NCBI GenBank assembly: GCA_021737785.1
Contig: JAIPDI010000025.1
Span: 20,385 to 84,384 of the forward strand
Source: Deltaproteobacteria bacterium
Lineage (GTDB): Bacteria > Desulfobacterota > DSM-4660 > Desulfatiglandales > Desulfatiglandaceae
Length of the DNA: 64,000 nucleotides
Direction: 5' to 3'
Shown here in pieces: positions 35,010-47,843 of the stretch. The notes under the pieces were generated by a model, which ran no database searches, was not told the DNA's origin, and saw nothing but the letters and a program-made list of their open reading frames with translations. Every line of letters begins with the position of its first letter. The stretch's first letter is position 1. A program made the position numbers and the translations under genes.

Positions 35010-35663
35010 TCAATAAACCCATCCCAGGAATCCCAGACAGATGATATTGGCGATTACGGCCGTGAGGTAAAGGCACGTCACAACGGCAATTTTGGCCGTG
35101 TGGGACCTGAGGGAGAGGACCAGAATGGTGGCCACGTAAAAGTGGAAGTAGCCGAAGAAGAAGATGAGCCAGATCCCGCCGAAGCTGCGGTTCCACCAGG
35201 GGTATTCCCAGACCAGGAGACCTCCCTTATTGAGCGCGCATTCCACGAACACGCAGAACGCTGCATAGCCGATGGCCCAGAACCATCGATTGGGGATTCC
35301 CAAGATTCTTTCGGCCGGGTCCTCCGACAGGGTGTGATAATAGATGATGCCGGCAATGGCGAACATGAACATGATCTCGATGTTCCAGCCCACCATGGTC
35401 CGGAGGGCCGTTTCGCCGGGCACGGTCCAGCAGGCGGAATGCTGGGTAAAGTGAAGCACCCAGCCGTTCCAGGTCTCGTTGATAAAATCCATGCCGAACA
35501 GGGTCAGCCCGGCATAGACCGCATCCCAGTTGCCCGATGACCGCGCCGCCTTGATTTCCCGCGCGTAAATATAGAACACAACGGCCAGCAGAGGGATGAC
35601 ATACCACTTGAGTGTGGACAGGTCTCTCAAGTGTTGAAGGGCCAGTTCGGATGCGTGCGTCAC
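35010..35663 (-). CDS. multi-pass membrane protein of unknown function
   Basis: 217 residues with about six hydrophobic helices, rich in Trp and aromatic residues (WNGWVLHFT, NIEIMFMFAIAGIIYYH, WFWAIGYAAFCVFVE). No family recognised; no motif for a known transporter. The start is GTG at 35663 with GGGAGG 5 bases before. It lies downstream of the AmpG gene on the same strand with 190 bases between. Confidence 0.7.
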   Translation of the reverse strand: MTHASELALQHLRDLSTLKWYVIPLLAVVFYIYAREIKAARSSGNWDAVYAGLTLFGMDFINETWNGWVLHFTQHSACWTVPGETALRTMVGWNIEIMFMFAIAGIIYYHTLSEDPAERILGIPNRWFWAIGYAAFCVFVECALNKGGLLVWEYPWWNRSFGGIWLIFFFGYFHFYVATILVLSLRSHTAKIAVVTCLYLTAVIANIICLGFLGWVY

Positions 35664-37308: not shown

Positions 37309-39735
37309 TCATTCCGTGAGTATCTGCACTGTTTCGGCGATCTCCTCAAGGGATACGGCGTCCCTCAATGACTCCATCCGTTTCATGACCTCGGCAAAGC
37401 GGATCCCCTCGGCCGCACTGATCCATTCCAGTTGGAGCCGTTCGGGCCGCATTCCCAGCTTTGCCATCTTTTTGTGTATTTTTGCGACCCGCTTTTCGGT
37501 CCAGTGATTGGCGTCGATATAATGGCAGTCGCCGATATGGCACCCGCTCACCAGGATCACGGGCGCCCCCATCTTAAAGCCCTCCCAGATGAACTTTTCA
37601 TCGACCCTTCCCGAGCACATGGTCCGGATGAGCCGCACGTTGGGAGGGTACTGGAGCCTGGACACCCCGGCAAAGTCGGCCCCGGCATAGGAGCACCAGT
37701 TGCAGGCAAAGGCCAGGACCTTTTCCTTGGGGTCCTCTTCCAGGAGGGCATGGACCTGATTAAGGATCTGGTCATCGGTGAAATGATTCATGACAATGGC
37801 GTCGAAGGGACACTCTGCCGCGCAGGTGCCGCATCCGGCGCAGGCGGCGGTATTGACCACAGCCGGGGTCTTCCGCTTGACATCCACGGTGATGGCGTTG
37901 TAAGGGCAGACCTCCGCGCACTTGCCGCACGACTTGCATGCCTCCGCCACCACCATGGAGGTGATCGGCTCGGTGGTGATCTCCCCCTTGTGCATGAGTC
38001 GGATGGCCCGTGCCGCGGCGGCCGAGGCCTGGGTCACGCTCTCCTTGATGTCCTTGGGGCTTTCCGCACATCCGGCGTAGAAGACGCCCCGGGTGGCAGC
38101 GTCTACCGGCTGGAGCTTGGGATGGGCCTCCAAGAAGAACCCGTCCGGGGTAAGCTGGAGTCCCAGCATCTCCTGAAGCCGCTGGGTGCTGGAGGCCGGT
38201 TTGATCCCCAGGGCCAGGACCAGCATATCTAGAGAATGGGTTTCGAGTTTGCCGGTGGCCGTGTTTTCCACCGATACCTTCAGGCTCTTGTCCGGTCCTT
38301 CTTCCACGGTTCCCGGAAGCCCCCTGAGATAATGCACCCCCAAGCGCCGGCTTCGCGTGTAGAGGTCTTCAAAGCCCTTTCCAAAGGCCCGTATGTCGAT
38401 GTAAAAGACCTTGAGGTCCATGTCGGGATAGTGCTCTTTGAGCATGAGGGTGCTCTTCACCGTGTTCATGCAGCAGATATTGGAGCAGTAGCTTCCTCCC
38501 TTTTTGGCGGAACGGGACCCCACGCACTGCACAAACCCGATGGACCGGGGCGGTTTTCGGTCTGTGGGCCGAAGGACCTCTCCTCCGGTCGGTCCACCGG
38601 CATTGATGAGCCGTTCCAATTCAAGGCTGGTGACCACGTTCGGAAACCGGGCATAGGCGTATTCATCCATCTCAGTAGGGTCGTAGACCTCCAGGCCGGT
38701 GGCCACCACTATGGAGCCTACGGTCTCGACGATCTCTTCGTCGGACATGTGAAAATCGATGCACCCCTTGTCGCAGGCGTCCACGCACTTGGCGCAGACC
38801 ACGGGATTGTGACCGAGGCACTCGGCGATGTTGATGACATAGGCCGAAGGAACGGCCTGGGGAAATGGGGAGAAAATGGCCCGCCGGGAGGAGAGGCCCA
38901 GGTTGAACTCATCCGGACGCACCACCGGGCAGACCTTGGCGCATTCCCCGCATGCCGTGCATTCCTTTTCATTCACGTAGCGGGCCTTTTTCAGTATCCT
39001 GACATCAAAATTGCCGACATAGCCCTTGACATCGACCACGTCGCTGAGGGTGTAGAGGGTGATCCGGGGATGTCGACCGACATCCGTCATCTTGGGCCCC
39101 AGTATTCAGATGGAACAGTCCATGGTGGGAAAGGTTTTGTCCAGCTGGGCCATGACCCCGCCGATGCTGGGCAGTTTTTCCACTAGGACCACGTCGTAGC
39201 CGTTGTCTGCAAGGTCGAGGGCCGCCTGGATCCCGGCCACGCCGGCTCCGATCACCAGGGTCCTCTTGGTCAGGGGAAGGGTGTCCTCATGGAGCGCCTC
39301 AAGGAGCCGTATCCGCGATACGGCCATCTTGACCAGGTCCCGGGCCTTTTGTGTGGCCCCCTCGGGATCCTTCATGTGGACCCAGCTGCACTGCTCCCGT
39401 AGATTGGCCATCTCCAGGAGATAGGGATTGAGTCCGGCCGACTGGAGCATCTGTCTGAAGGTGGGTTCGTGCAGCCGCGGGGAACAGGATGCCACCACCA
39501 CCCGGTCCAGTTCATACTCCTTAATATCATCCTTCATCTGTTGCTGTCCGGGCTCTGAACAGGCGTAGCCGATATCTTTGGAGACGATCACATCGCTCAG
39601 AAGTGCGGCCGATTCGGCCACCTTCCGGCAGTCCACCGTCTGGGCGATATTGAGTCCGCAGTGACAGACATAGACCCCGATGCGGGGGCTTTCAGCCGAA
39701 GGTTGCGTCTCATTGTCAAGCACACTTGCTTCCAT
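37309..39735 (-). CDS. hdrA: HdrA-MvhD fusion, probable selenoprotein (UGA = Sec210)
   Basis: One 808-residue protein if the TGA at 39106-39108 is read as selenocysteine. The N-terminal part has the FAD fold (VIGAGVAGIQAALDLA) and ends KTFPTMDCSI; after the UGA it continues ILGPKMTDVGRHP without shift. The UGA falls exactly where HdrA has its invariant Cys (Sec in methanococcal HdrA). The second part carries ferredoxin motifs (CTACGECAKVCP, CKSCGKCAEVCP, CAGCGTCAAECP) and the C-terminus is MvhD (CNWCSYAGAD). A hairpin with GGTC loop follows the UGA. Such HdrA units bifurcate or confurcate electrons between ferredoxin and other carriers. The start at 39735 has AGAGGA upstream; last gene of the kor-hdr operon. 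Confidence 0.92.
39068..39085 (-). promoter_or_regulatory. bacterial SECIS hairpin candidate in hdrA
   Basis: On the minus strand GGATGTC-GGTC-GACATCC, a perfect 7-bp stem with a GGUC loop, the same loop as in E. coli fdhF. The loop begins 27 bases after the UGA, inside the range known for bacterial SECIS elements. Confidence 0.8.
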
Positions 39736-39761: not shown

Positions 39762-41345
39762 TTACTCCCATTCGATGGTCTGGGCCAGGACGCTGGTGAC
39801 GTCCATCATTTCCATCTGAAGCGCCTCGCCCAAAAACGGGTCCTCCATGGCGCAGCGGAGATGGATCTGACACTTGGGACAGGCCGTGACCAACAGATCG
39901 CTTCCTGTTTCATGGGCCTGCCGGATGCGTTTGACCTGAAGGGCCTTGCTGAATGCATCGCACCCGATCCAGGCGCTGTTTCCGCAGCAGATGGCGCTGG
40001 CGCCATGATCCGCCATCTCGTCGAACGATACAGGATTCAGCCGCCGGATCAGTTTCCTCGGGAGATCCGACCGATTTTCAAGGCGGCTCAGTCGACAGGG
40101 ATCCTGAAAGGTCAGTTTCCTGTCCAGTTCCTTGAAACTCACGGCCCCCTTGTCGATCTCTTTTTCGATCAGATCAAAGATGTGGGTGACCTTGAACCCC
40201 GGATCCACGCCCTGCCGAGGATAGTCCCTGGCAAGGGTGTGATAACACTCGGGGCAGGCCGTGATGACCTCTTCAACCCCCATGTCCTGAAGGGCGCGCA
40301 CATTCAACTGCGCCAGCTTCAAAAAGTTCTCCTGATCGCCGGACCAGAGGAGGTCGTGACCGCAGCAGCGCTCATCCTGGAGAAGGGCCGGATGGATGTC
40401 GAAGAAATTGAGAAGCCGCAGGCTGTCCACCAGTGTGTTGCGGGTTTTGACCCCCAGATGGGTCCTGAAAAAGATATCAAAATAAGGGGCGCATCCTCCG
40501 AAAAAAAGGACCTTGCTGTCCGGATCCGTCCGAATGTCTTTGGGGAGCCAGTCCCAGTGTCTGATCGGGAGTTCTTCCGATGTCATGGTCCGCATCAGGG
40601 ATTGAAAAAATCCCCCGTGGGCCGCGTAGCTGTTTGAGCCTCTCGTTGCCAGGTAATGGCGAAGATCGCGGATGAACTCGGCAAAATTGACTGCCGACGG
40701 GCACCGGTCATAACAGAGCCCGCAAGTGAGACATGACCAGATGTCCTTCTGGACCGCGGGGTCGTCGATATGCCCGGCAATCACCTCGCCGACGATCCCC
40801 CTCGGAGAAAAGGGCTTCCCTGCGAGGGTCAGGGGGCAGGCGGAGGAGCACTTCCCGCAGTCCTGACAGGCATAGACATCGTGGGCGGATACGATGTCCT
40901 TAACCCTGTCTTCACCTTCAGTTTCCAGGATGCTTTCTTCTGAAGGGACCACTAAACTGGGACCCATTTCCCGTATTTCCGCTGAGAAGTCCTGGAGAAA
41001 CGACAGGAGCCGTTCCGGTTCATCGGGGAGAAAGGTGGCCAGACGAAGGCGATCCTTTCCAAGGCCCAGCAGCTCCAGGATTCCCCGGGTATCTTCCACA
41101 TGACCCTGCGCATTGGACGATCCTGTTCCATACCGGCATGAACCGGGCCGACACCCCACCAGGGCCACGCCGTGGGTCCCCATTTCAAAACACCTGAGCA
41201 GGAGGGCCTTACTGATCCTTCCCACGCACGGAATCCGGACCATCTTGATCTCGTCCGGAATTAGGGCGGCCGTATCCTGAAGCGTCTGAAATGCCGCATG
41301 GGGGCCCCAGTTGCACATAAAGAGGATGATATTAAATTCTTTCAT
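39762..41345 (-). CDS. MvhD-HdrC-HdrB fusion protein
   Basis: 527 residues joining three parts. Residues 1-130 are MvhD-like (IILFMCNWGPHAAFQTL, IPCVGRISKALLL, GCRPGSCRYGTGSSNAQ). The HdrC-like part has two 4Fe-4S motifs, CQDCGKCSSACP and CLTCGLCYDRCP. The HdrB-like part has two complete CCG domains (DERCCGHD ... CPECYH and SAICCGNSAW ... CPKCQIH), which in HdrB bind the noncubane clusters that reduce a disulfide. No membrane segment. It probably receives electrons from the HdrA-type subunits encoded on both sides of it. Confidence 0.9.
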   Translation of the reverse strand: MKEFNIILFMCNWGPHAAFQTLQDTAALIPDEIKMVRIPCVGRISKALLLRCFEMGTHGVALVGCRPGSCRYGTGSSNAQGHVEDTRGILELLGLGKDRLRLATFLPDEPERLLSFLQDFSAEIREMGPSLVVPSEESILETEGEDRVKDIVSAHDVYACQDCGKCSSACPLTLAGKPFSPRGIVGEVIAGHIDDPAVQKDIWSCLTCGLCYDRCPSAVNFAEFIRDLRHYLATRGSNSYAAHGGFFQSLMRTMTSEELPIRHWDWLPKDIRTDPDSKVLFFGGCAPYFDIFFRTHLGVKTRNTLVDSLRLLNFFDIHPALLQDERCCGHDLLWSGDQENFLKLAQLNVRALQDMGVEEVITACPECYHTLARDYPRQGVDPGFKVTHIFDLIEKEIDKGAVSFKELDRKLTFQDPCRLSRLENRSDLPRKLIRRLNPVSFDEMADHGASAICCGNSAWIGCDAFSKALQVKRIRQAHETGSDLLVTACPKCQIHLRCAMEDPFLGEALQMEMMDVTSVLAQTIEWE

Positions 41346-41386: not shown

Positions 41387-44300
41387 TCACGGGCTCAGGG
41401 TTTCGTGCAGGTCCTGATCCGTTGATCCGGTCCCCAGCGAGGGCCGGAAAAGTACCGCACTCAGCAGTTCTTCCAGATACCCCTGATTTCTGTATGGGCT
41501 GTCAGCGGCATTCGACGGGCATACCGAGATGCAGTTGCCGCACCCCTTACAGAGGGCCTCGTCCACCTTTGCCACCCACCCGCCCACGGTGTTCTCGTGG
41601 AGGGTCACGGCCTGGTAGGGGCAGATACGAGTGCAGCGGCCGCAGCCCCGGCAACGATCTTCGTCCACCACCACAGTGAATCCCTTGCTCTGTCTCGGCC
41701 CCCGGGGCATGATGGCGGCGGCAAGGGCGGCGGCCGCAGCGCCGGCCCTTCGTTGAGACACGGGAATCCCCGAGGGATAGGCCTTGAACAGTCCCGCGAT
41801 GGGGGTGGCACCGGGATAGGCAAAGGGAATTCCCGAGAGGTCGCTCTTTTGCATGGACGGCGACAGCATGATGCTCGGGAGACCCTCCTGGGGAATGTAG
41901 GGGATCAGCGCTCTCGCCTTGTTTCCTAAGATGATGGCCCCCACCTGCATCACCTGAGAAAACCCGTCGGTCTCGACAAATATCTGAAAATTGCCCAGGT
42001 TGCCGCTCATGCCGTTGACCCTGGACCCCTCGAAACAGTGGATGTTCGGATGGGCCAGTTCCGTTGACAGCGGTTTTTCACGGGTCCCGAACAAAAACAC
42101 CTCAAGCCCGGCAGAGGCCAATGTCTGGGCACTGCTGACAGCGGCTTCAGACTCGCCGATGACTGCGGTGGCAAAATTGTATATTCTTACCGGGGCCGGC
42201 AGGGGCCGCAGGGTCCTGGCCCTGCTGATGGATCGGTCGATCAGTCCGGAAAACCGTTCCATGGCCGCATCCCGGTCATGTGCCAGATACCGGAGGGCCT
42301 CGCCCCTCAGATTGCAGGTCTCCACCATGGCGCGGCTGACGCCTGTCCCATGGAAGAGGGCGTCCTTCAATCGACTGCGTTGATCTGTGCAGGCACTGCA
42401 TACGAAGTCGAGGGGGCAGCACACACACGACGCAAGGACCACCCGGGTCAACCCCTTTTCACGGATCGCCCGCAGAATGCCGGACGTCCCTTCCACGACG
42501 CATGCAGCGGGCATGACCTCGGCGTGGACGATTTCCTCTCTTTGCGTCAGGGCCTCGACATATGGATTCATCTCGTCTATCCAGCCGAAGGCATCATTGC
42601 ACCGGCATACGAAGACGCCCATGCGGATCTCAGGGGACAGGTCCGGGTCCGGGGGGAGGAATGAGACGCCGCGGCCTCTCGGTCGCTGGGAGGTCCCGCC
42701 CAACAATACCATGGCCTGGGCCGCAGCGGCAAAGCCACGGACAATCATGGCATTTACATCCGATTTGGCGGCCTTGGGACCATAGGCCCTGAGTACATCT
42801 TCTCCTTTGACCGCGGGCGCTGCTTCCGGGTCGGCGATAATCACCACCCCTGCATGCTCCACCCCCTCTTCCGCCTGTTGCTGGTGCTGAATGGCACTCA
42901 AAGAGCCGCAGGCCTCGGTGCAGAGGAGGCATTCGGAACAGATCCCGCACTGGAGGCACCGTTCGGCCTCCGATATGACCTGGGATTCGCTCAGACCCAG
43001 GGCCACCTCCAAGAAGTTATCTTTTCTGATGGCCGGTTGTCTCTCAGCCATGGTGGGCCGGGCAAGAGAGGGGATGTCTTCGGGGATCTGAAGATACTCC
43101 CGGGCTTCGGGTCTCGATGAGCCATTCAGCGGGATCTCTTCTTTGCTGAGGGCCGTATGCACCGAACGGGCGACCGCCCTGCCCGAGGCCATGGACTGGA
43201 CCACACTGGAGGGACCTGTCACTGCATCGCCTGCCGCATAGACGCCGTCCATATTCGTGCGTCCGGCTTCATCAGCCTCCAGGAAGCCGTAAGGTGTGGT
43301 CCGAAGCCCGGCAGGGTCTCCCTTTCCACTGGATTCGGTCGGGGCGGGAAAGGCGCCTGCCTGGCCGATGGCCACAATGACCCTGGAGAAATTGAGCTCA
43401 AAAGGCTCTGACGCGGGAACCATGACCGGCCATGCAATGCCGTTGGCATCAGGGGGGCCCGGTTGTGTGGACCGGCAGGTTAGATGGGTCAGCCTTCCGT
43501 TGCGGCCGGAAAAGGCCGTCACCTGGGTCTGATCCACGATGGCGATGCCCTCTTCCTTGGCCTGCTTGACCTCTTCTCTGTCTGCCGGTATCTGGTCTTG
43601 GGAAAACCACGAAATAATGGTGACATCGGCGCCCAGACGCTTCATGGTCCGGGCGGTATCAAAGGCGGCATTCCCGTCGCCGATGACGGCCAACGCCTCT
43701 CCCTGCAGCGCTTCCTGCTGTCTTGCCTCACCCCGGGTGTCAAGCCCTTCACGGTAGAGCCGGTTCAGGGCAGCGAGGCATCCTTCGACCCCTTCAAGGT
43801 CCTCTCCCGGCACCCCCAGTTTCCTGTCTGTCCAGGATCCTACGGTCAGTATCACGGCCTCGAAATCTTCCCTCAATCGGTCCAGGGACTGGAAGACATT
43901 CACCTCATGGGAGGTAACCATTTCAACCCCTGACCTTCTGACGTATTCGAGGTCGTAATCCAGGATATCTCTCGGAAGACGGTGCGGGCCGATCCCGTAC
44001 CGGAGCAGGCCGCCTGCTTCGGTTTCCTTTTCAAAAACAGTCACCGGGTATCCCATCCGGGCCAGATCAGCGGCAGCGGCCAGTCCGGCCGGCCCTGAAC
44101 CGACCACGGCGATCTTTTCTTCTCTCGCAGGGGTGGTCTTGATCGACGGGGCGCTGGCGTGGCTTTTCTCGTAATCCGCTACAAACCGTTTGATATCTCT
44201 GATGGCAAGGGGTTCATCCAGTTCTCCCCGTCGGCAGGCCGCTTCGCAGGGATGGGTGCACACCCTTCCACAGATTCCGGGGAGGACATTGTCTCTTCTG

Positions 44301-44848
44301 ACCACATCGAGGGCCTCCTGGTACCGGCCGACGCGTGTGAGGGCGATGTAGGCCTGGGCATTGACCCCCAGGGGGCATTCAGTCTGGCACTGCGGCTGAC
44401 GGCTCTTTTCAATGACCGGTCTCCCCGGAAGGGACTGCCTGCCGGCAAATCGTAACGGCTTCCCCCCGTCCGGGAGGGATACCGGACAGACCGCCGCACA
44501 CCGGCCGCACAAGACGCATTGGTTAGGGTCGATATACGTCTGGGAGGTTTTGATTCTGGCGCGGAACCCCTGGGGGGTGTGCTTGAGAGAGAGAACCTTG
44601 GCCGGCAGGACGCAGCGAATGCGGGGATTGCGCAGGATCCGGATGAGTCCGGACCGGTATGCGAAATTGAGCGGTACGCCGGAGGCCAATCGCCATTCTT
44701 CATGGGCCAGTTTTTGGTCCAGATCGGGATCCGTGTCCACCAGGATGACGGGAATTCCCAGCTCGCCCAATTTGCTGGTGGCAGCGATCCCTGCGGGCGT
44801 GGCACCGATGACAATAACCCTGTGCAGACGGTCTTTCGGGCGCGTCAT
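41387..44848 (-). CDS. GltD/NfnB-HdrA-like iron-sulfur flavoprotein fusion
   Basis: A 1153-residue protein with several flavin and Fe-S units in series. It opens with an FAD/NAD Rossmann motif (VIVIGATPAGIAATS) and CVLCGRCAAVCP. A GltD/NfnB-like unit (CQTECPLGVNAQAYIAL, GICGRVCTHPCEAACRRG, VVGSGPAGLAAAADLARMG, GDGNAAFDTARTMKRLG, YAAGDAVTGPS) follows. A cysteine-rich linker CLQCGICSECLLCTEAC leads to an HdrA-like part (VFVCRCNDAFGW, ASCVCCPLDFVCSAC), and it ends with a 2[4Fe-4S] ferredoxin (CRGCGRCTRICP, CKGCGNCISVCP). The NfnB-like part suggests NAD(P)H use. It lies 2 bases after korC. Confidence 0.88.
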   Translation of the reverse strand: MTRPKDRLHRVIVIGATPAGIAATSKLGELGIPVILVDTDPDLDQKLAHEEWRLASGVPLNFAYRSGLIRILRNPRIRCVLPAKVLSLKHTPQGFRARIKTSQTYIDPNQCVLCGRCAAVCPVSLPDGGKPLRFAGRQSLPGRPVIEKSRQPQCQTECPLGVNAQAYIALTRVGRYQEALDVVRRDNVLPGICGRVCTHPCEAACRRGELDEPLAIRDIKRFVADYEKSHASAPSIKTTPAREEKIAVVGSGPAGLAAAADLARMGYPVTVFEKETEAGGLLRYGIGPHRLPRDILDYDLEYVRRSGVEMVTSHEVNVFQSLDRLREDFEAVILTVGSWTDRKLGVPGEDLEGVEGCLAALNRLYREGLDTRGEARQQEALQGEALAVIGDGNAAFDTARTMKRLGADVTIISWFSQDQIPADREEVKQAKEEGIAIVDQTQVTAFSGRNGRLTHLTCRSTQPGPPDANGIAWPVMVPASEPFELNFSRVIVAIGQAGAFPAPTESSGKGDPAGLRTTPYGFLEADEAGRTNMDGVYAAGDAVTGPSSVVQSMASGRAVARSVHTALSKEEIPLNGSSRPEAREYLQIPEDIPSLARPTMAERQPAIRKDNFLEVALGLSESQVISEAERCLQCGICSECLLCTEACGSLSAIQHQQQAEEGVEHAGVVIIADPEAAPAVKGEDVLRAYGPKAAKSDVNAMIVRGFAAAAQAMVLLGGTSQRPRGRGVSFLPPDPDLSPEIRMGVFVCRCNDAFGWIDEMNPYVEALTQREEIVHAEVMPAACVVEGTSGILRAIREKGLTRVVLASCVCCPLDFVCSACTDQRSRLKDALFHGTGVSRAMVETCNLRGEALRYLAHDRDAAMERFSGLIDRSISRARTLRPLPAPVRIYNFATAVIGESEAAVSSAQTLASAGLEVFLFGTREKPLSTELAHPNIHCFEGSRVNGMSGNLGNFQIFVETDGFSQVMQVGAIILGNKARALIPYIPQEGLPSIMLSPSMQKSDLSGIPFAYPGATPIAGLFKAYPSGIPVSQRRAGAAAAALAAAIMPRGPRQSKGFTVVVDEDRCRGCGRCTRICPYQAVTLHENTVGGWVAKVDEALCKGCGNCISVCPSNAADSPYRNQGYLEELLSAVLFRPSLGTGSTDQDLHETLSP

Positions 44849-44850
44849 GA

Positions 44851-45447
44851 TCAGGCTCCTGCCTTCCCTCTGGCCTTCTTCTCCCGTCCCTTGAGCACGG
44901 CCAGTCCGTAATCACAGCCTTTGTTGAAGGCAGTTGCGTTCATTTCCCCGGTTCCTTTGGGCACAGATTTCGTCACCGCATCGCGGGCCGCTTCCACAGA
45001 GACGGCCCCCGTGACAGCGGTAAAAAACCCCAGCATGATGATGTTGGCCATCATGATCCTTCCCAGCTCTTCGGCCATGCGTGAGGAGGGGATCGAGAAA
45101 AAATCTCCTGAAACCCCCTTGGGCTGAACCAGATCCTTGTCTATCAGCAGGGTCCCCCCCTCTTTCATCTGATCTATAAACTTGTCAAATCCGGCCTGGG
45201 ACATGCATACCAGGACATCCGGCCTCCTCACATAGGGGTAATGGATGGCCTGATCGGCGATGATTACCTGGGCGCTGCACGCTCCGCCCCGGGCCTCGGG
45301 CCCGTAGGCCTGGACCAGGGTGCTCTGTCGGTGGTCTCCGATGACCGCGGCCTTGCCGAGGATACGGCCTGCCAGTACAATTCCCTGGCCGCCGAACCCG
45401 GTAAACACAATCTCCTGCCTTCGGGCATCCGTCTTCTGTTGAGTCAT
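44851..45447 (-). CDS. korC: 2-oxoacid:ferredoxin oxidoreductase gamma subunit
   Basis: About 198 residues of the POR gamma domain: IVFTGFGGQGIVLAGRILG at the start, VQAYGPEARGGACSAQVII, and PDVLVCMSQAGFDKF. The ATG at 45447 overlaps the korB stop as ATGA, so the two are translationally coupled; longer readings lack support. Works with KorA, KorB and the ferredoxin subunit to oxidise a 2-oxoacid, most probably 2-oxoglutarate, to the acyl-CoA with ferredoxin reduction. Confidence 0.9.
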   Translation of the reverse strand: MTQQKTDARRQEIVFTGFGGQGIVLAGRILGKAAVIGDHRQSTLVQAYGPEARGGACSAQVIIADQAIHYPYVRRPDVLVCMSQAGFDKFIDQMKEGGTLLIDKDLVQPKGVSGDFFSIPSSRMAEELGRIMMANIIMLGFFTAVTGAVSVEAARDAVTKSVPKGTGEMNATAFNKGCDYGLAVLKGREKKARGKAGA

Positions 45448-46304
45448 TGCTTCGGGCCCTTCACTTGTTCCAGCAACTCTTTGGGTCGGCATATGTTATC
45501 GTATCTGTCGGTACAGGTGGGACGTTCGGTTTCAATGAATTTGCCCAGGATGATCTTCTTGTCAAAATCGATATCCAGCTCCCACGGTTGGGCGTCGTTC
45601 CGGATGATGGTTCGTTCCTGGTAGATCTTCATGGAATCGATGGCCTTTTCCTTATTTCTCCGGCCGTAATTGATCGGGCAGGGGGAAAGGACTTCAACAA
45701 AGGAAAATCCCCTGTTCAAAAGGGCCTCCTCGATGGATTCCATAAGATCGCGGGCATGGAGAATCGTCCACCTGGCCACATAGCTGGCCCCGCATGCAAA
45801 GGCCAGGAGGGGGAGGTTAAACGGGGCATCCGGATTGCCCGCAGGCGTGGTGGTGGTCCTGGCCAACAAAGGCGTGGTGGCCGCCGCCTGACCTCCTGTC
45901 ATTCCGTAATTAAAATTGTTGACGCACACCACCGTGAGGTCCACATTGCGCCGGGCCGCGTGGATGAAATGGTTGCCGCCTATGGCGAAGAGGTCTCCGT
46001 CGCCGCTGAACACCACCACATTGAGTTCGGGATTTGCCAATTTCATGCCGGTGGCAAACGGTATGGCCCTCCCGTGGGTGGTGTGATAGGAATCCAGATC
46101 CACATAGCCGGCGCCCCTCCCTGAGCAGCCGATCCCTGAAACCATGACCGTTTTTTCGAGGTCGATGCCGCTTTTCTTCATGGCGGTCAGACAGGCGGAA
46201 AACGCCGTACCGATACCGCATCCGGGACACCAGATATGGGGGATCCGGTCGGTCCGGAGGAGATCATCTAAAGGGTGCCTGTCCTGTTTTTTGGGGGGGT
46301 TCAT
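45444..46304 (-). CDS. korB: 2-oxoacid:ferredoxin oxidoreductase beta subunit
   Basis: 286 residues with the TPP-binding domain: WCPGCGIGTAFSACL (cluster/TPP cysteine region), GDGDLFAIGGNHF (Mg-TPP motif G-D-G ... N) and NFNYGMTGGQAAATTP. The order A-B-C and the sequence type suggest the 2-oxoglutarate class, though 2-oxoisovalerate cannot be excluded. AGGA precedes the start. A 103-base gap separates it from korA, containing short repeated ATGTTGAATGTTCGATG-like text. Confidence 0.92.
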   Translation of the reverse strand: MNPPKKQDRHPLDDLLRTDRIPHIWCPGCGIGTAFSACLTAMKKSGIDLEKTVMVSGIGCSGRGAGYVDLDSYHTTHGRAIPFATGMKLANPELNVVVFSGDGDLFAIGGNHFIHAARRNVDLTVVCVNNFNYGMTGGQAAATTPLLARTTTTPAGNPDAPFNLPLLAFACGASYVARWTILHARDLMESIEEALLNRGFSFVEVLSPCPINYGRRNKEKAIDSMKIYQERTIIRNDAQPWELDIDFDKKIILGKFIETERPTCTDRYDNICRPKELLEQVKGPKQ

Positions 46305-46407: not shown

Positions 46408-47553
46408 TTAAAAAAGGTCTTTCAATGCTTCTATGACGCGTTCGGGCGGAATAATGGTGCCCCCCGGATGCCCCACCAAAAAAGACGGGACCTTTCCGGC
46501 GGCGCATCTTTCAACTTCCAGGTGAATCTGGCCCAGGTTGAGTTCCACCGTTACGAACCCCTTGATACGCTTGGCCAGCTCACGTATCCGGGCCTCAGGG
46601 AAAGGCCATACCGTAATCAGCCGGAGGAGGCCCGCCTTGATTCCCTGTTCCCGCGCCTCATCCACGGCCGCCAGGGCGGTTCGTGCCGAAACCCCGTAAG
46701 AGACGATCACGATGTCTGCATCCTCGATCCGGTAGGCCTCCGTCCGAATGATATCATCGAGATTCCGCTGAATCTTCCCCACCAGCTGGTCCATCATCCA
46801 TTCCTGGGCCTCGACGGTCATTACGGGATAGCCCCGCTGATCATGGGTAAGCCCTGTGACATGAATATGATATCCCTCGCCCGCAGAGGCCATGGGGGCG
46901 ATGCCGTCGGGGCCCGGTTCGTAGGGATTGAAACGGTTCTTTCTCCCTTTTGGACGGGGCCTTGAGACCGTCCGGATGGTTTTCGCATCCGGTATGACCA
47001 CCCGTTCGCTCAGGTGACCGATCATCTCATCGGTCATAATCAGGACGGGGATCCGGTAGGTCTCGCTCAGGTTAAATGCATCGATCGTCTGATAAAAGAT
47101 TTCCTGGGGAGAGGACGGTGCCAGCGCGATGATCTCATAATGGCCGTGGGACCCCCACCGGGCCTGCATCATATCCCCCTGGGCCCCCTGGGTGGGAAGG
47201 CCAGTGGAAGGCCCGGCCCGTTGGACATTGACCAGAACACACGGGGTTTCCGTACAGATCGCCAGGCCCAGATTTTCCATCATGAGGCTGAAGCCGGGGC
47301 CCGAAGTGGCGGTCATGCTCTTGACGCCCGCACAGGAGGCCCCAATGACAGAGCCGATGGCGGCGATCTCGTCTTCCATCTGGATGAAAGTTCCCCCCAC
47401 CTCCGGCAGCCTTCCCGAAATATGCTCGGCGATCTCCGTGGCAGGGGTGATCGGGTATCCGCCGAAAAACCGGCAGCCGGCGGCCAGAGCCCCCTCAGCG
47501 CAGGCTACATCGCCGGTCATGAAATGCTCGCCTGTGAGGACGGCCGGTCTCAT
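46408..47553 (-). CDS. korA: 2-oxoacid:ferredoxin oxidoreductase alpha subunit
   Basis: 381 residues. AEGALAAGCRFFGGYPITPATEI is the marker of this class of alpha subunits; SMTATSGPGFSLMMENLG, QRAGPSTGLPTQGAQGD and the C-terminal transketolase-type domain follow. The ferredoxin gene upstream overlaps its start by ATGA. Provides low-potential electrons, which in benzoyl-CoA degraders can feed ring reduction; the Hdr-like proteins downstream are the likely acceptors here. Confidence 0.93.
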   Translation of the reverse strand: MRPAVLTGEHFMTGDVACAEGALAAGCRFFGGYPITPATEIAEHISGRLPEVGGTFIQMEDEIAAIGSVIGASCAGVKSMTATSGPGFSLMMENLGLAICTETPCVLVNVQRAGPSTGLPTQGAQGDMMQARWGSHGHYEIIALAPSSPQEIFYQTIDAFNLSETYRIPVLIMTDEMIGHLSERVVIPDAKTIRTVSRPRPKGRKNRFNPYEPGPDGIAPMASAGEGYHIHVTGLTHDQRGYPVMTVEAQEWMMDQLVGKIQRNLDDIIRTEAYRIEDADIVIVSYGVSARTALAAVDEAREQGIKAGLLRLITVWPFPEARIRELAKRIKGFVTVELNLGQIHLEVERCAAGKVPSFLVGHPGGTIIPPERVIEALKDLF

Positions 47554-47843
47554 ACTGCCTCCCTTTCTTTCGGGGCGGACGGATCCATGGGGGCTTCAAC
47601 CGAATAGATGGCAAACTCCGGGCAGATGATCTCGCAGAAATGGCAGTTCACGCACTCATCCGGCTTCTTGACGGCCGGAGGATGATAGCCCTTGGCGTTA
47701 AACCGGGTTGAAAATTCAAGGACATGCCGTGGGCAGAATTCGATGCAGTAACCACATCCCTTGCATCGATCTTCCAGGATATACACAATACCCGTGGTAA
47801 TCTGAATCTCTTCCGAATCGAACGGAACCCGCCAGAATTCCAT
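47550..47843 (-). CDS. korD: 2[4Fe-4S] ferredoxin subunit of the 2-oxoacid oxidoreductase
   Basis: 97 residues with CKGCGYCIEFCPRHVL and CVNCHFCEIICPEFAI, the two cluster motifs of the delta subunit of POR/KOR enzymes. First gene of the kor-hdr operon, with a GAGAAGG site. It relays electrons from KorAB to the acceptors. Confidence 0.93.
   Translation of the reverse strand: MEFWRVPFDSEEIQITTGIVYILEDRCKGCGYCIEFCPRHVLEFSTRFNAKGYHPPAVKKPDECVNCHFCEIICPEFAIYSVEAPMDPSAPKEREAV

What the first reader, a model, noticed from the sequence alone, without database searches (positions are those of the whole stretch)
37309..39735. HdrA-MvhD fusion read through UGA as selenocysteine
Two adjoining frames join in the same phase across one UGA. 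The residue before it (DCSI) and after it (ILGPKM) match the HdrA segment where a conserved cysteine, and in methanococci a selenocysteine, sits near the FAD. A perfect 7-bp hairpin with a GGUC loop lies 27 bases downstream. An annotation pipeline would split this into two broken genes.
Basis: partly seen in the sequence, partly recalled or inferred. Interest (0 to 1): 0.85.

Follow-up and report, generated by a model that had tools for sequence, protein, structure and literature searches.

The report
Selenocysteine HdrA-MvhD electron-transfer protein
A gene that looks broken by a stop codon encodes a protein predicted to carry the rare amino acid selenocysteine at a site that likely helps hold an iron-sulfur cluster; the stop codon and an RNA hairpin just after it are kept in all 80 related genes first collected, whereas nine more distant relatives without the stop carry ordinary cysteine there and an imperfect hairpin.

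Summary
Confirmed. On the minus strand, 39735-37309 reads as one 808-residue HdrA-MvhD protein with one in-frame UGA (39108-39106, residue 210). The genome has tRNA-Sec (anticodon TCA), SelA, SelB and a UGA-bearing SelD. All 80 orthologs collected have TGA at this codon and no other internal stop; nine fetched relatives without the stop have TGC/TGT. A GGUC-loop hairpin 20 bases after the UGA keeps 6-7 of 7 pairs in the UGA genes but 3-5 in the nine cysteine genes. Its codons are the most synonymously constrained window of the gene, and one stem pair covaries on a tree, about 10 concordant to 0 discordant comparisons. Residue 210 aligns with Cys197 of methanogen HdrA, described as the trans ligand of the partner subunit's N-terminal cluster (PMC9012536), not merely near FAD. 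The gene ends a conserved operon: korDABC, HdrL-like, flpD-hdrCB, hdrA-mvhD. Cysteine forms up to 78% identical are listed in a protein database. Sec-HdrA was reported in bacteria by 2006: new member of a known kind. Sec incorporation and the Fe-Se ligand are untested.

The parts
37309..39735 (-). hdrA-mvhD fusion gene (HdrA2 / type Ia HdrA), 808 residues with the UGA read through, terminated by its own TGA at 37311-37309
   Evidence: Read-through; NF040770 HdrA2 1207.4 bits over the 1100 cut-off; 5odc_A E 1.5e-236
39106..39108 (-). in-frame UGA, codon 210, predicted selenocysteine (CSIU = CxxU); aligns with Cys197 of 5odc_A
   Evidence: 80 of 80 orthologs TGA; Cys in 9 of 9 fetched relatives without the stop
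39068..39085 (-). bacterial SECIS-like hairpin GGAUGUC-GGUC-GACAUCC
37309..39090 (-). C-terminal open frame (starts at Met216) of the kind that gene callers report as a separate gene
   Evidence: 90 of the 120 listed database proteins align only after residue 210
37372..37719 (-). C-terminal MvhD/FlpD domain (residues 673-788); no UGA
   Evidence: PF02662 155.7 bits; cysteines 678, 681, 707, 732, 737 in 121 of 121 rows
39762..41345 (-). flpD-hdrC-hdrB fusion, 527 aa: two CxxCxxCxxxCP motifs and two CCG motifs (285-367, 417-492)
   Evidence: present upstream in 72 of 72 testable orthologous loci
41387..44848 (-). HdrL-like protein, 1153 aa, GltD/NADPH-type flavoprotein with HdrA-like parts
   Evidence: none of the 25 best NCBIfam models shown reaches its cut-off; upstream in 54 of 56 testable loci
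44851..45492 (-). KorC-like, 2-oxoacid:acceptor oxidoreductase gamma subunit
   Evidence: best 196.2 bits, below its cut-off of 235; upstream in 52 of 55 testable loci
45444..46304 (-). KorB-like, beta subunit
   Evidence: best 245.3 bits, below its cut-off of 364
46408..47553 (-). KorA, 2-oxoacid:acceptor oxidoreductase alpha subunit
   Evidence: NF006412 564.6 bits over 411
47550..47843 (-). KorD-like two-cluster ferredoxin, 97 aa
   Evidence: open frame and two CxxCxxCxxxCP motifs read directly (no family search made); homologs precede korA in 8 of 8 Cys-form loci L156-L163

Best explanation
This gene encodes a full-length HdrA-MvhD fusion whose in-frame UGA is predicted to be read as selenocysteine with the likely help of the hairpin after it, and the selenium would likely ligate the N-terminal [4Fe-4S] cluster of the partner HdrA subunit. 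Shown by sequence: one frame across one UGA; Sec machinery in the genome; UGA or cysteine, and nothing else, in the relatives fetched as DNA; a hairpin that is intact and covarying where UGA is present and imperfect in the cysteine genes. Inferred: SelB binds the hairpin and delivers Sec-tRNA; Sec210 takes the place of Cys197; HdrA works as a homodimer, since the N-terminal domain and position 197 are both present, whereas among this genome's other HdrA copies the N-terminal domain lies on one copy and the Sec on another. Inferred for function: KorDABC oxidises a 2-oxoacid (2-oxoglutarate is the likeliest), and the HdrL-like, FlpD-HdrCB and HdrA-MvhD proteins share its electrons by flavin-based bifurcation or confurcation between ferredoxin, pyridine nucleotide and a disulfide acceptor at the two CCG sites.
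For: Machinery: tRNA-Sec 73.6 bits (cut-off 47), anticodon TCA; SelB 397.4 bits; SelA 616.9 bits; SelD 372.9 bits with its own UGA in a UxxK motif. Codon: TGA in 80 of 80 orthologs, each the only stop in the aligned frame, and in 29 of 29 loci L113-L141 plus L164-L166; TGT/TGC in 9 of 9 fetched relatives without the stop. RNA: loop GGTC in 80 of 81; pair U-A 44, C-G 29, U-G 8, no mismatch; codons 217-222 are the lowest of 404 six-codon windows for synonymous diversity, GAT 81/81, CAT 81/81; on a 121-row tree the pair changes 25 times, and independent comparisons average 9.7 same way, 0 opposite, 3.3 no difference. Of the 111 fetched UGA rows, 102 form 7 of 7 pairs and 9 form 6; the nine Cys rows form 3-5; L155 keeps the peptide DVGRH with 3 of 7 pairs. 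Position: 210 = Cys197 of 5odc_A, the trans cluster ligand (PMC9012536). The N-terminal cysteines 24, 26, 59, 84, 116 and the residues E374 and K427 do not vary in the rows that cover them. In the stretches of this genome read, 9 of 9 other Sec copies start after the N-terminal domain, and 13 copies with the N-terminal domain (one only partly covered) have no Cys or Sec aligned at 210.
Against: No selenium was measured. Single-sequence folding is not significant beyond the 21-mer, and the minimum-energy fold of the window's first 48 nt is not the hairpin. No Rfam SECIS family matched. The outermost stem pair is absent in 6 of 81. Two of the nine Cys genes still pair at the covarying position, and one forms 5 of 7 pairs. 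Cysteine forms listed in the protein database reach 78% identity, so Sec is not needed for function throughout this branch. Met216 could allow re-initiation, giving a separate C-terminal protein. The trans-ligand role rests on a methanogen structure as described in one paper, not on a model of this protein; alignments of the N-terminal paralogs around position 210 are weak. Kor and Hdr are linked by gene order only.
Confidence: 0.93

Rival explanations
1. Two separate proteins: translation ends at the UGA, and a second protein starts at Met216 fifteen bases downstream by re-initiation.
For: ATG at codon 216; databases list the C-terminal part as its own protein (90 of the 120 listed hits).
Against: TGA, never TAA or TAG, in 80 of 80; Cys forms are single full-length proteins (30 of the 120 listed; 9 of 9 loci); the hairpin is intact only in the UGA genes; Met216 is also part of the Cys proteins. 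The frame would break inside the flavin domain.
Confidence: 0.03
2. A pseudogene or a sequencing error: a real TGC/TGT/TGG read as TGA.
For: A single in-frame stop in a draft genome of 96 contigs.
Against: The same codon is TGA in 80 of 80 separate records and in 29 of 29 loci of a second, partly overlapping sample, with no other internal stop; E374, K427 and most cysteines are invariant.
Confidence: 0.01
3. Stop-codon reassignment (UGA read as Trp or Gly throughout the genome).
For: UGA occurs in frame in several genes of this genome.
Against: The gene itself ends in TGA. Seventeen other UGAs of this genome align with cysteines of this protein: nine at position 210 and eight at MvhD positions 681 or 732 (which counted only UGAs aligned with Cys); SelD has its UGA at UxxK. 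Relatives have Cys, not Trp or Gly, at 210. Sec machinery is present.
Confidence: 0.01
4. Sec is inserted but serves as a redox-active CxxU thiol-selenol pair beside the FAD, as in thioredoxin reductases, and not as a cluster ligand.
For: The motif is CSIU and Cys207 is invariant (121 of 121); the review PMC13188914 lists the motif as CxxU (passages read).
Against: PMC9012536 assigns Cys197 as the trans ligand of the N-terminal cluster; in this genome Sec is on copies that lack the N-terminal domain, beside N-terminal copies that lack the residue.
Confidence: 0.2

Closest known systems
Sec-containing HdrA of Deltaproteobacteria and Methanococcales (PMC1794560, PMC2702500, PMC2933860, PMC13188914)
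   Same: HdrA with UGA; PMC1794560 counts 16 bacterial Sec-HdrA, 7 of them in Syntrophobacter fumaroxidans (passages read); PMC13188914 gives the motif CxxU.
   Different: The operon described there for bacteria is glpC-hdrA-frhD-frhG-frhA with hydrogenase genes; here MvhD is fused to HdrA and the operon is korDABC, HdrL-like, flpD-hdrCB, hdrA-mvhD.
HdrA2 (NF040770; Methanosarcina acetivorans HdrA2B2C2, PMC5296606; type Ia HdrA of PMC12054007)
   Same: HdrA fused at its C-terminus to MvhD; scores over the NF040770 cut-off. PMC13188914 lists Sec for this accession.
   Different: The main text of PMC5296606 has no word beginning 'selen'; HdrB and HdrC are here part of one FlpD-HdrCB protein; other operon partners.
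Desulfococcus multivorans Sec-HdrA (dmul_C02770/80, PMC5109826)
   Same: A split Sec-hdrA with SECIS; the paper's hdrA1 lies with mvhD1 and a pyridine nucleotide-disulfide oxidoreductase (Dmul_C02800): probably the same operon (passages read).
HdrL of Desulfobacterium autotrophicum HRM2 (PMC2702500)
   Same: HdrA/glutamate-synthase fusion proteins near mvhD, some with Sec (passages read).
   Different: The window's HdrL-like 1153-aa protein is read without an internal stop, and none of the 25 best NCBIfam models shown reaches its cut-off; no sequence comparison with HRM2 HdrL was made.

Membership tests
Sec-containing HdrA selenoprotein | In-frame UGA at the CxxU site where relatives have Cys | tested here: met
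Sec-containing HdrA selenoprotein | selA, selB, tRNA-Sec and selD in the same genome | tested here: met
Sec-containing HdrA selenoprotein | Bacterial SECIS: hairpin soon after the UGA with G in the first two loop bases | tested here: met
   Geometry; selection on RNA. Rules recalled from Zhang and Gladyshev 2005; bSECISearch itself was not run. Rfam models did not match.
Sec-containing HdrA selenoprotein | Selenium present in the protein | not testable with these tools
   needs 75Se or mass spectrometry
HdrA2 / type Ia HdrA | HdrA and MvhD in one polypeptide, over the NF040770 cut-off | tested here: met
   1207.4 bits against 1100, residues 18-797; PF02662 at 673-788
HdrA2 / type Ia HdrA | Bifurcation residues equivalent to E356 and K409 (PMC12054007, passages) | tested here: met
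   E374 and K427 by hand count on the alignment to 5odc_A, 121 of 121 rows
HdrA2 / type Ia HdrA | Reduction of CoM-S-S-CoB with HdrB and HdrC | not testable with these tools
   FlpD-HdrCB has two CCG motifs, but the acceptor is unknown
glpC-hdrA-frhD-frhG-frhA selenoprotein operon | Neighbouring FrhG/FrhA hydrogenase genes | tested here: not met
   The adjoining genes are korDABC-like, HdrL-like and FlpD-HdrCB upstream, and AmpG and a 217-aa frame downstream; the rest of the window was not searched for hydrogenases

The most novel reading that the evidence does not exclude
Selenocysteine here is a native selenolate ligand of a cubane [4Fe-4S] cluster shared between two subunits, tuning the ferredoxin branch of an electron-bifurcating complex that is fed by a 2-oxoacid oxidoreductase; the same genome uses Sec at this trans-ligand site in ten HdrA-type copies, either with its own N-terminal domain (this gene) or with the N-terminal domain on a neighbouring copy.
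Probability: 0.4. Interest if true: 0.72.

Novelty: new member of a known kind. Interest (0 to 1): 0.42.

Why it matters
Gene callers cut this protein in two (90 of the 120 listed database entries), so surveys of electron bifurcation see many of these as fragments. It also makes a concrete chemical claim testable: whether natural selenocysteine ligates an iron-sulfur cluster across a subunit interface, with cysteine forms up to 78% identical as ready-made comparisons. The Val/Ala-to-CGA/CGG covariation is a clean example of an RNA signal constraining the protein sequence.

Tried and rejected
Rfam SECIS: RF00031 on the own genome found nothing but rang in no control either; all Rfam families on 38980-39180 at E up to 10 gave three matches, none a SECIS. 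Thermodynamic folding alone did not support the hairpin beyond the 21-mer. An L002 match to tRNA-Sec over its cut-off (50.2 bits) was an ordinary tRNA-Trp. A simple hairpin search gave a hairpin after each of 17 other Cys-aligned UGA codons in the own genome, but several are weak (-4.0 to -4.7 kcal/mol); of its 34 control Cys codons one reached -9.4 and the next -6.4; the one is presumably Cys207, whose distance of 36 bases to the loop lets it find this same hairpin. Pseudogene, reassignment and re-initiation were set aside for the reasons under rivals. Literature: 10 of 10 searches used; of 14 papers I saw passages only, of the rest listings. I found no passage describing the korDABC, HdrL-like, flpD-hdrCB, hdrA-mvhD operon or Sec as this cluster's ligand, but the library lacks most subscription papers, among them the 2017 HdrABC-MvhAGD structure paper, which I know only by recall.

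Rows dropped or not examined: one search kept the best 80 of 579 confirmed loci. One search listed weaker matches and partial ones (for example G041, G113, G276:C28) that I did not fetch; the nine near-full-length matches without a stop at 58% identity or more (figures) were taken as the Cys set, so 'UGA or Cys only' is not tested at the DNA level beyond them. L166 was left out of the tree, and 6 of the 121 tree rows are identical to others. The 30 full-length database proteins with Cys at 210 (16 of them at 70-78% identity) were not checked as DNA, except that one has the contig length of L155; a source may have written U as C. Nine of these 30 keep the peptide D[V/A]GRH that all 112 UGA rows have; the other 21 do not, which speaks for real Cys forms there.

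Full report
WHAT IS THERE. On the minus strand of the window, 39735-37309 is one continuous frame interrupted by a single UGA at 39108-39106. Read through, it gives 808 residues: an N-terminal HdrA domain, a flavin (thioredoxin-reductase-like) domain, ferredoxin domains and a C-terminal MvhD/FlpD domain. It scores 1207.4 bits against the NCBIfam model HdrA2 (NF040770, cut-off 1100), and its best relative of solved structure is HdrA 5odc_A (E 1.5e-236). The gene's own terminator is also TGA.

SELENOCYSTEINE MACHINERY. The window's genome (5.3 Mb, 96 contigs, listed as 100% complete and 3.11% contaminated) has tRNA-Sec at 73.6 bits over a cut-off of 47, confirmed by ARAGORN with anticodon TCA, a full-length SelB (397.4 bits, cut-off 242.25), SelA (616.9 bits, cut-off 267.9) and SelD (372.9 bits, cut-off 125) with an in-frame UGA in a UxxK motif.

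THE CODON. A scan of one genome per species gave 579 confirmed loci, of which the best 80 (73-94% identity) were kept; their titles name Desulfobacteraceae, Desulfobulbaceae, Syntrophobacteraceae and other deltaproteobacterial genomes. In 80 of 80 the codon aligned with residue 210 is TGA, and it is the only stop in the aligned frame. A second sample of 297 genomes of the phylum, partly overlapping the first, gave 29 further loci, all TGA. The same sample held relatives without a stop; the nine near-full-length ones that I fetched (57-67% identity) have TGT or TGC, 9 of 9. Sixteen of the 30 Cys proteins are 70-78% identical to this one, so cysteine forms occur within the identity range of the 80 Sec loci; 21 of the 30 lack the D[V/A]GRH peptide that all 112 UGA rows have. 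These proteins were not checked as DNA, and a source may have written U as C.

THE HAIRPIN. The stem starts 20 bases after the UGA and the GGUC loop 27 bases after it. Folding one sequence is not persuasive, and no Rfam SECIS model matches. Comparison is. In the window plus 80 loci, the loop is GGTC in 80 of 81 and five of the seven stem pairs never vary; the outermost pair is lost in 6. The pair formed by the second base of codon 219 and the third base of codon 221 is U-A in 44, C-G in 29 and U-G in 8, never mismatched. One side of this pair changes an amino acid (Val or Ala), the other is synonymous (Arg CGA or CGG). On a tree of 121 rows (the window, the 80 loci, L113-L141 and L155-L165) built without columns 208-224, this pair changes 25 times among the 112 UGA rows; phylogenetically independent comparisons average 9.7 in the same direction, none opposite and 3.3 without difference (median sign-test p 0.002; quick tree, 33 of 112 inner branches open). 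Among 448 codon columns with a conserved degenerate amino acid, GAT218 (81/81) and CAT222 (81/81) show no synonymous variation and GGT220 (80/81) is third; codons 217-222 are the lowest of 404 six-codon windows. Of the 111 fetched UGA rows, 102 form all seven pairs and 9 form six; the nine Cys genes form three to five. Seven of the nine Cys genes do not pair at the covarying position and two do. L155 keeps the very peptide DVGRH with codons GAC GTG GGC CGT CAT, which leave 3 of 7 pairs. The constraint therefore follows the UGA, not the protein.

WHERE THE SELENIUM WOULD SIT. The alignment to 5odc_A is ungapped around the site, so residue 210 equals Cys197. [quoted passage not shown] The window's protein has both: cysteines 24 and 26 (120 of 120 rows covering them) and 59, 84 and 116 (121 of 121) do not vary. 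Its paralogs in the stretches of the same genome that I fetched follow the sharing rule: of 27 matches that span position 210, 9 Sec copies and 4 Cys copies (two of them weakly aligned, in L143 and L147) start after the N-terminal domain, 13 copies that carry the N-terminal domain (one only partly covered) have no Cys or Sec aligned at 210 (in two of them the position aligns to a gap), and one match has neither. Alignments of the N-terminal copies around 210 are weak. The inference is that Sec serves as the trans ligand of a [4Fe-4S] cluster. A CxxU redox pair remains a rival.

SURROUNDINGS AND LIKELY FUNCTION. Upstream on the same strand lie korD-, korA-, korB- and korC-like genes, an HdrL-like 1153-residue flavoprotein and a FlpD-HdrC-HdrB fusion with two CCG motifs. 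The FlpD-HdrCB gene is upstream in 72 of 72 orthologous loci with enough DNA, the HdrL-like gene in 54 of 56 and korC in 52 of 55. In the eight fetched Cys loci L156-L163, korDABC stands directly before hdrA-mvhD without the HdrL-like gene between; the ninth, L155, has another neighbourhood. The link between a 2-oxoacid oxidoreductase and this HdrA is thus found on both sides of the Sec/Cys difference. By analogy with characterised HdrA complexes, I infer electron transfer from the 2-oxoacid oxidoreductase into a bifurcating or confurcating complex; the bifurcation residues E356 and K409 named in PMC12054007 (passages read) correspond to E374 and K427, 121 of 121 rows. The direction, the pyridine nucleotide and the disulfide acceptor are unknown.

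WHAT IS KNOWN. Sec-HdrA in deltaproteobacteria was reported in 2006 (PMC1794560, passages), in Desulfobacterium autotrophicum in 2009 (PMC2702500, passages) and, with SECIS, in Desulfococcus multivorans in 2016 as the split gene dmul_C02770/80 (PMC5109826, passages), probably an ortholog of this gene. A 2026 review lists the family under NF040770 with motif CxxU (PMC13188914, passages). HdrA-MvhD fusions are known as HdrA2 (PMC5296606, passages). The gene is therefore a new member of a known kind. What I did not find in print, within the ten searches and the passages read, is the conserved kor-hdr operon, the RNA covariation, or the statement that Sec is the trans cluster ligand.

VERDICT. The ordinary part is that Sec-HdrA is a known selenoprotein family; the part worth a bench test is the predicted iron-selenium ligand.

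Noticed in passing
own genome loci L142, L144, L145, L146, L148, L149, L151, L153: Seventeen further UGA codons align with cysteines of this protein: nine at the HdrA position 210 and eight at MvhD positions 681 or 732. With the window gene and SelD that is at least 19 predicted Sec residues in the stretches read, so the genome looks rich in selenoproteins.
   Followed up: partly
own genome, tandem HdrA loci in L142-L152: Tandem HdrA copies divide the N-terminal domain and the residue-210 Cys/Sec between them, as described for ANME archaea (PMC9012536), here with Sec in 9 of the 13 copies that carry Cys or Sec.
   Followed up: partly
L155 (G132 contig C1) and L166 (G132 contig C2): A genome of the same family holds both a Sec form (L166) and a Cys form (L155, 67% identity) of this protein.
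   Followed up: partly
L156-L163: korDABC directly followed by a Cys-type hdrA-mvhD: a simpler form of the operon without the HdrL-like gene in between.
   Followed up: partly
L088, L095, L109: The orthologous loci in which korC (all three) or the HdrL-like gene (L088, L095) was not found upstream within the DNA held.
   Followed up: no
L150, 14338-14435: The tRNA-Sec gene lies about 9 kb from an HdrA cluster with Cys at the site.
   Followed up: no
window 35010-35663, minus strand: A 217-residue open frame, seemingly a membrane protein, with no NCBIfam or Pfam match, near an AmpG-family transporter gene.
   Followed up: no
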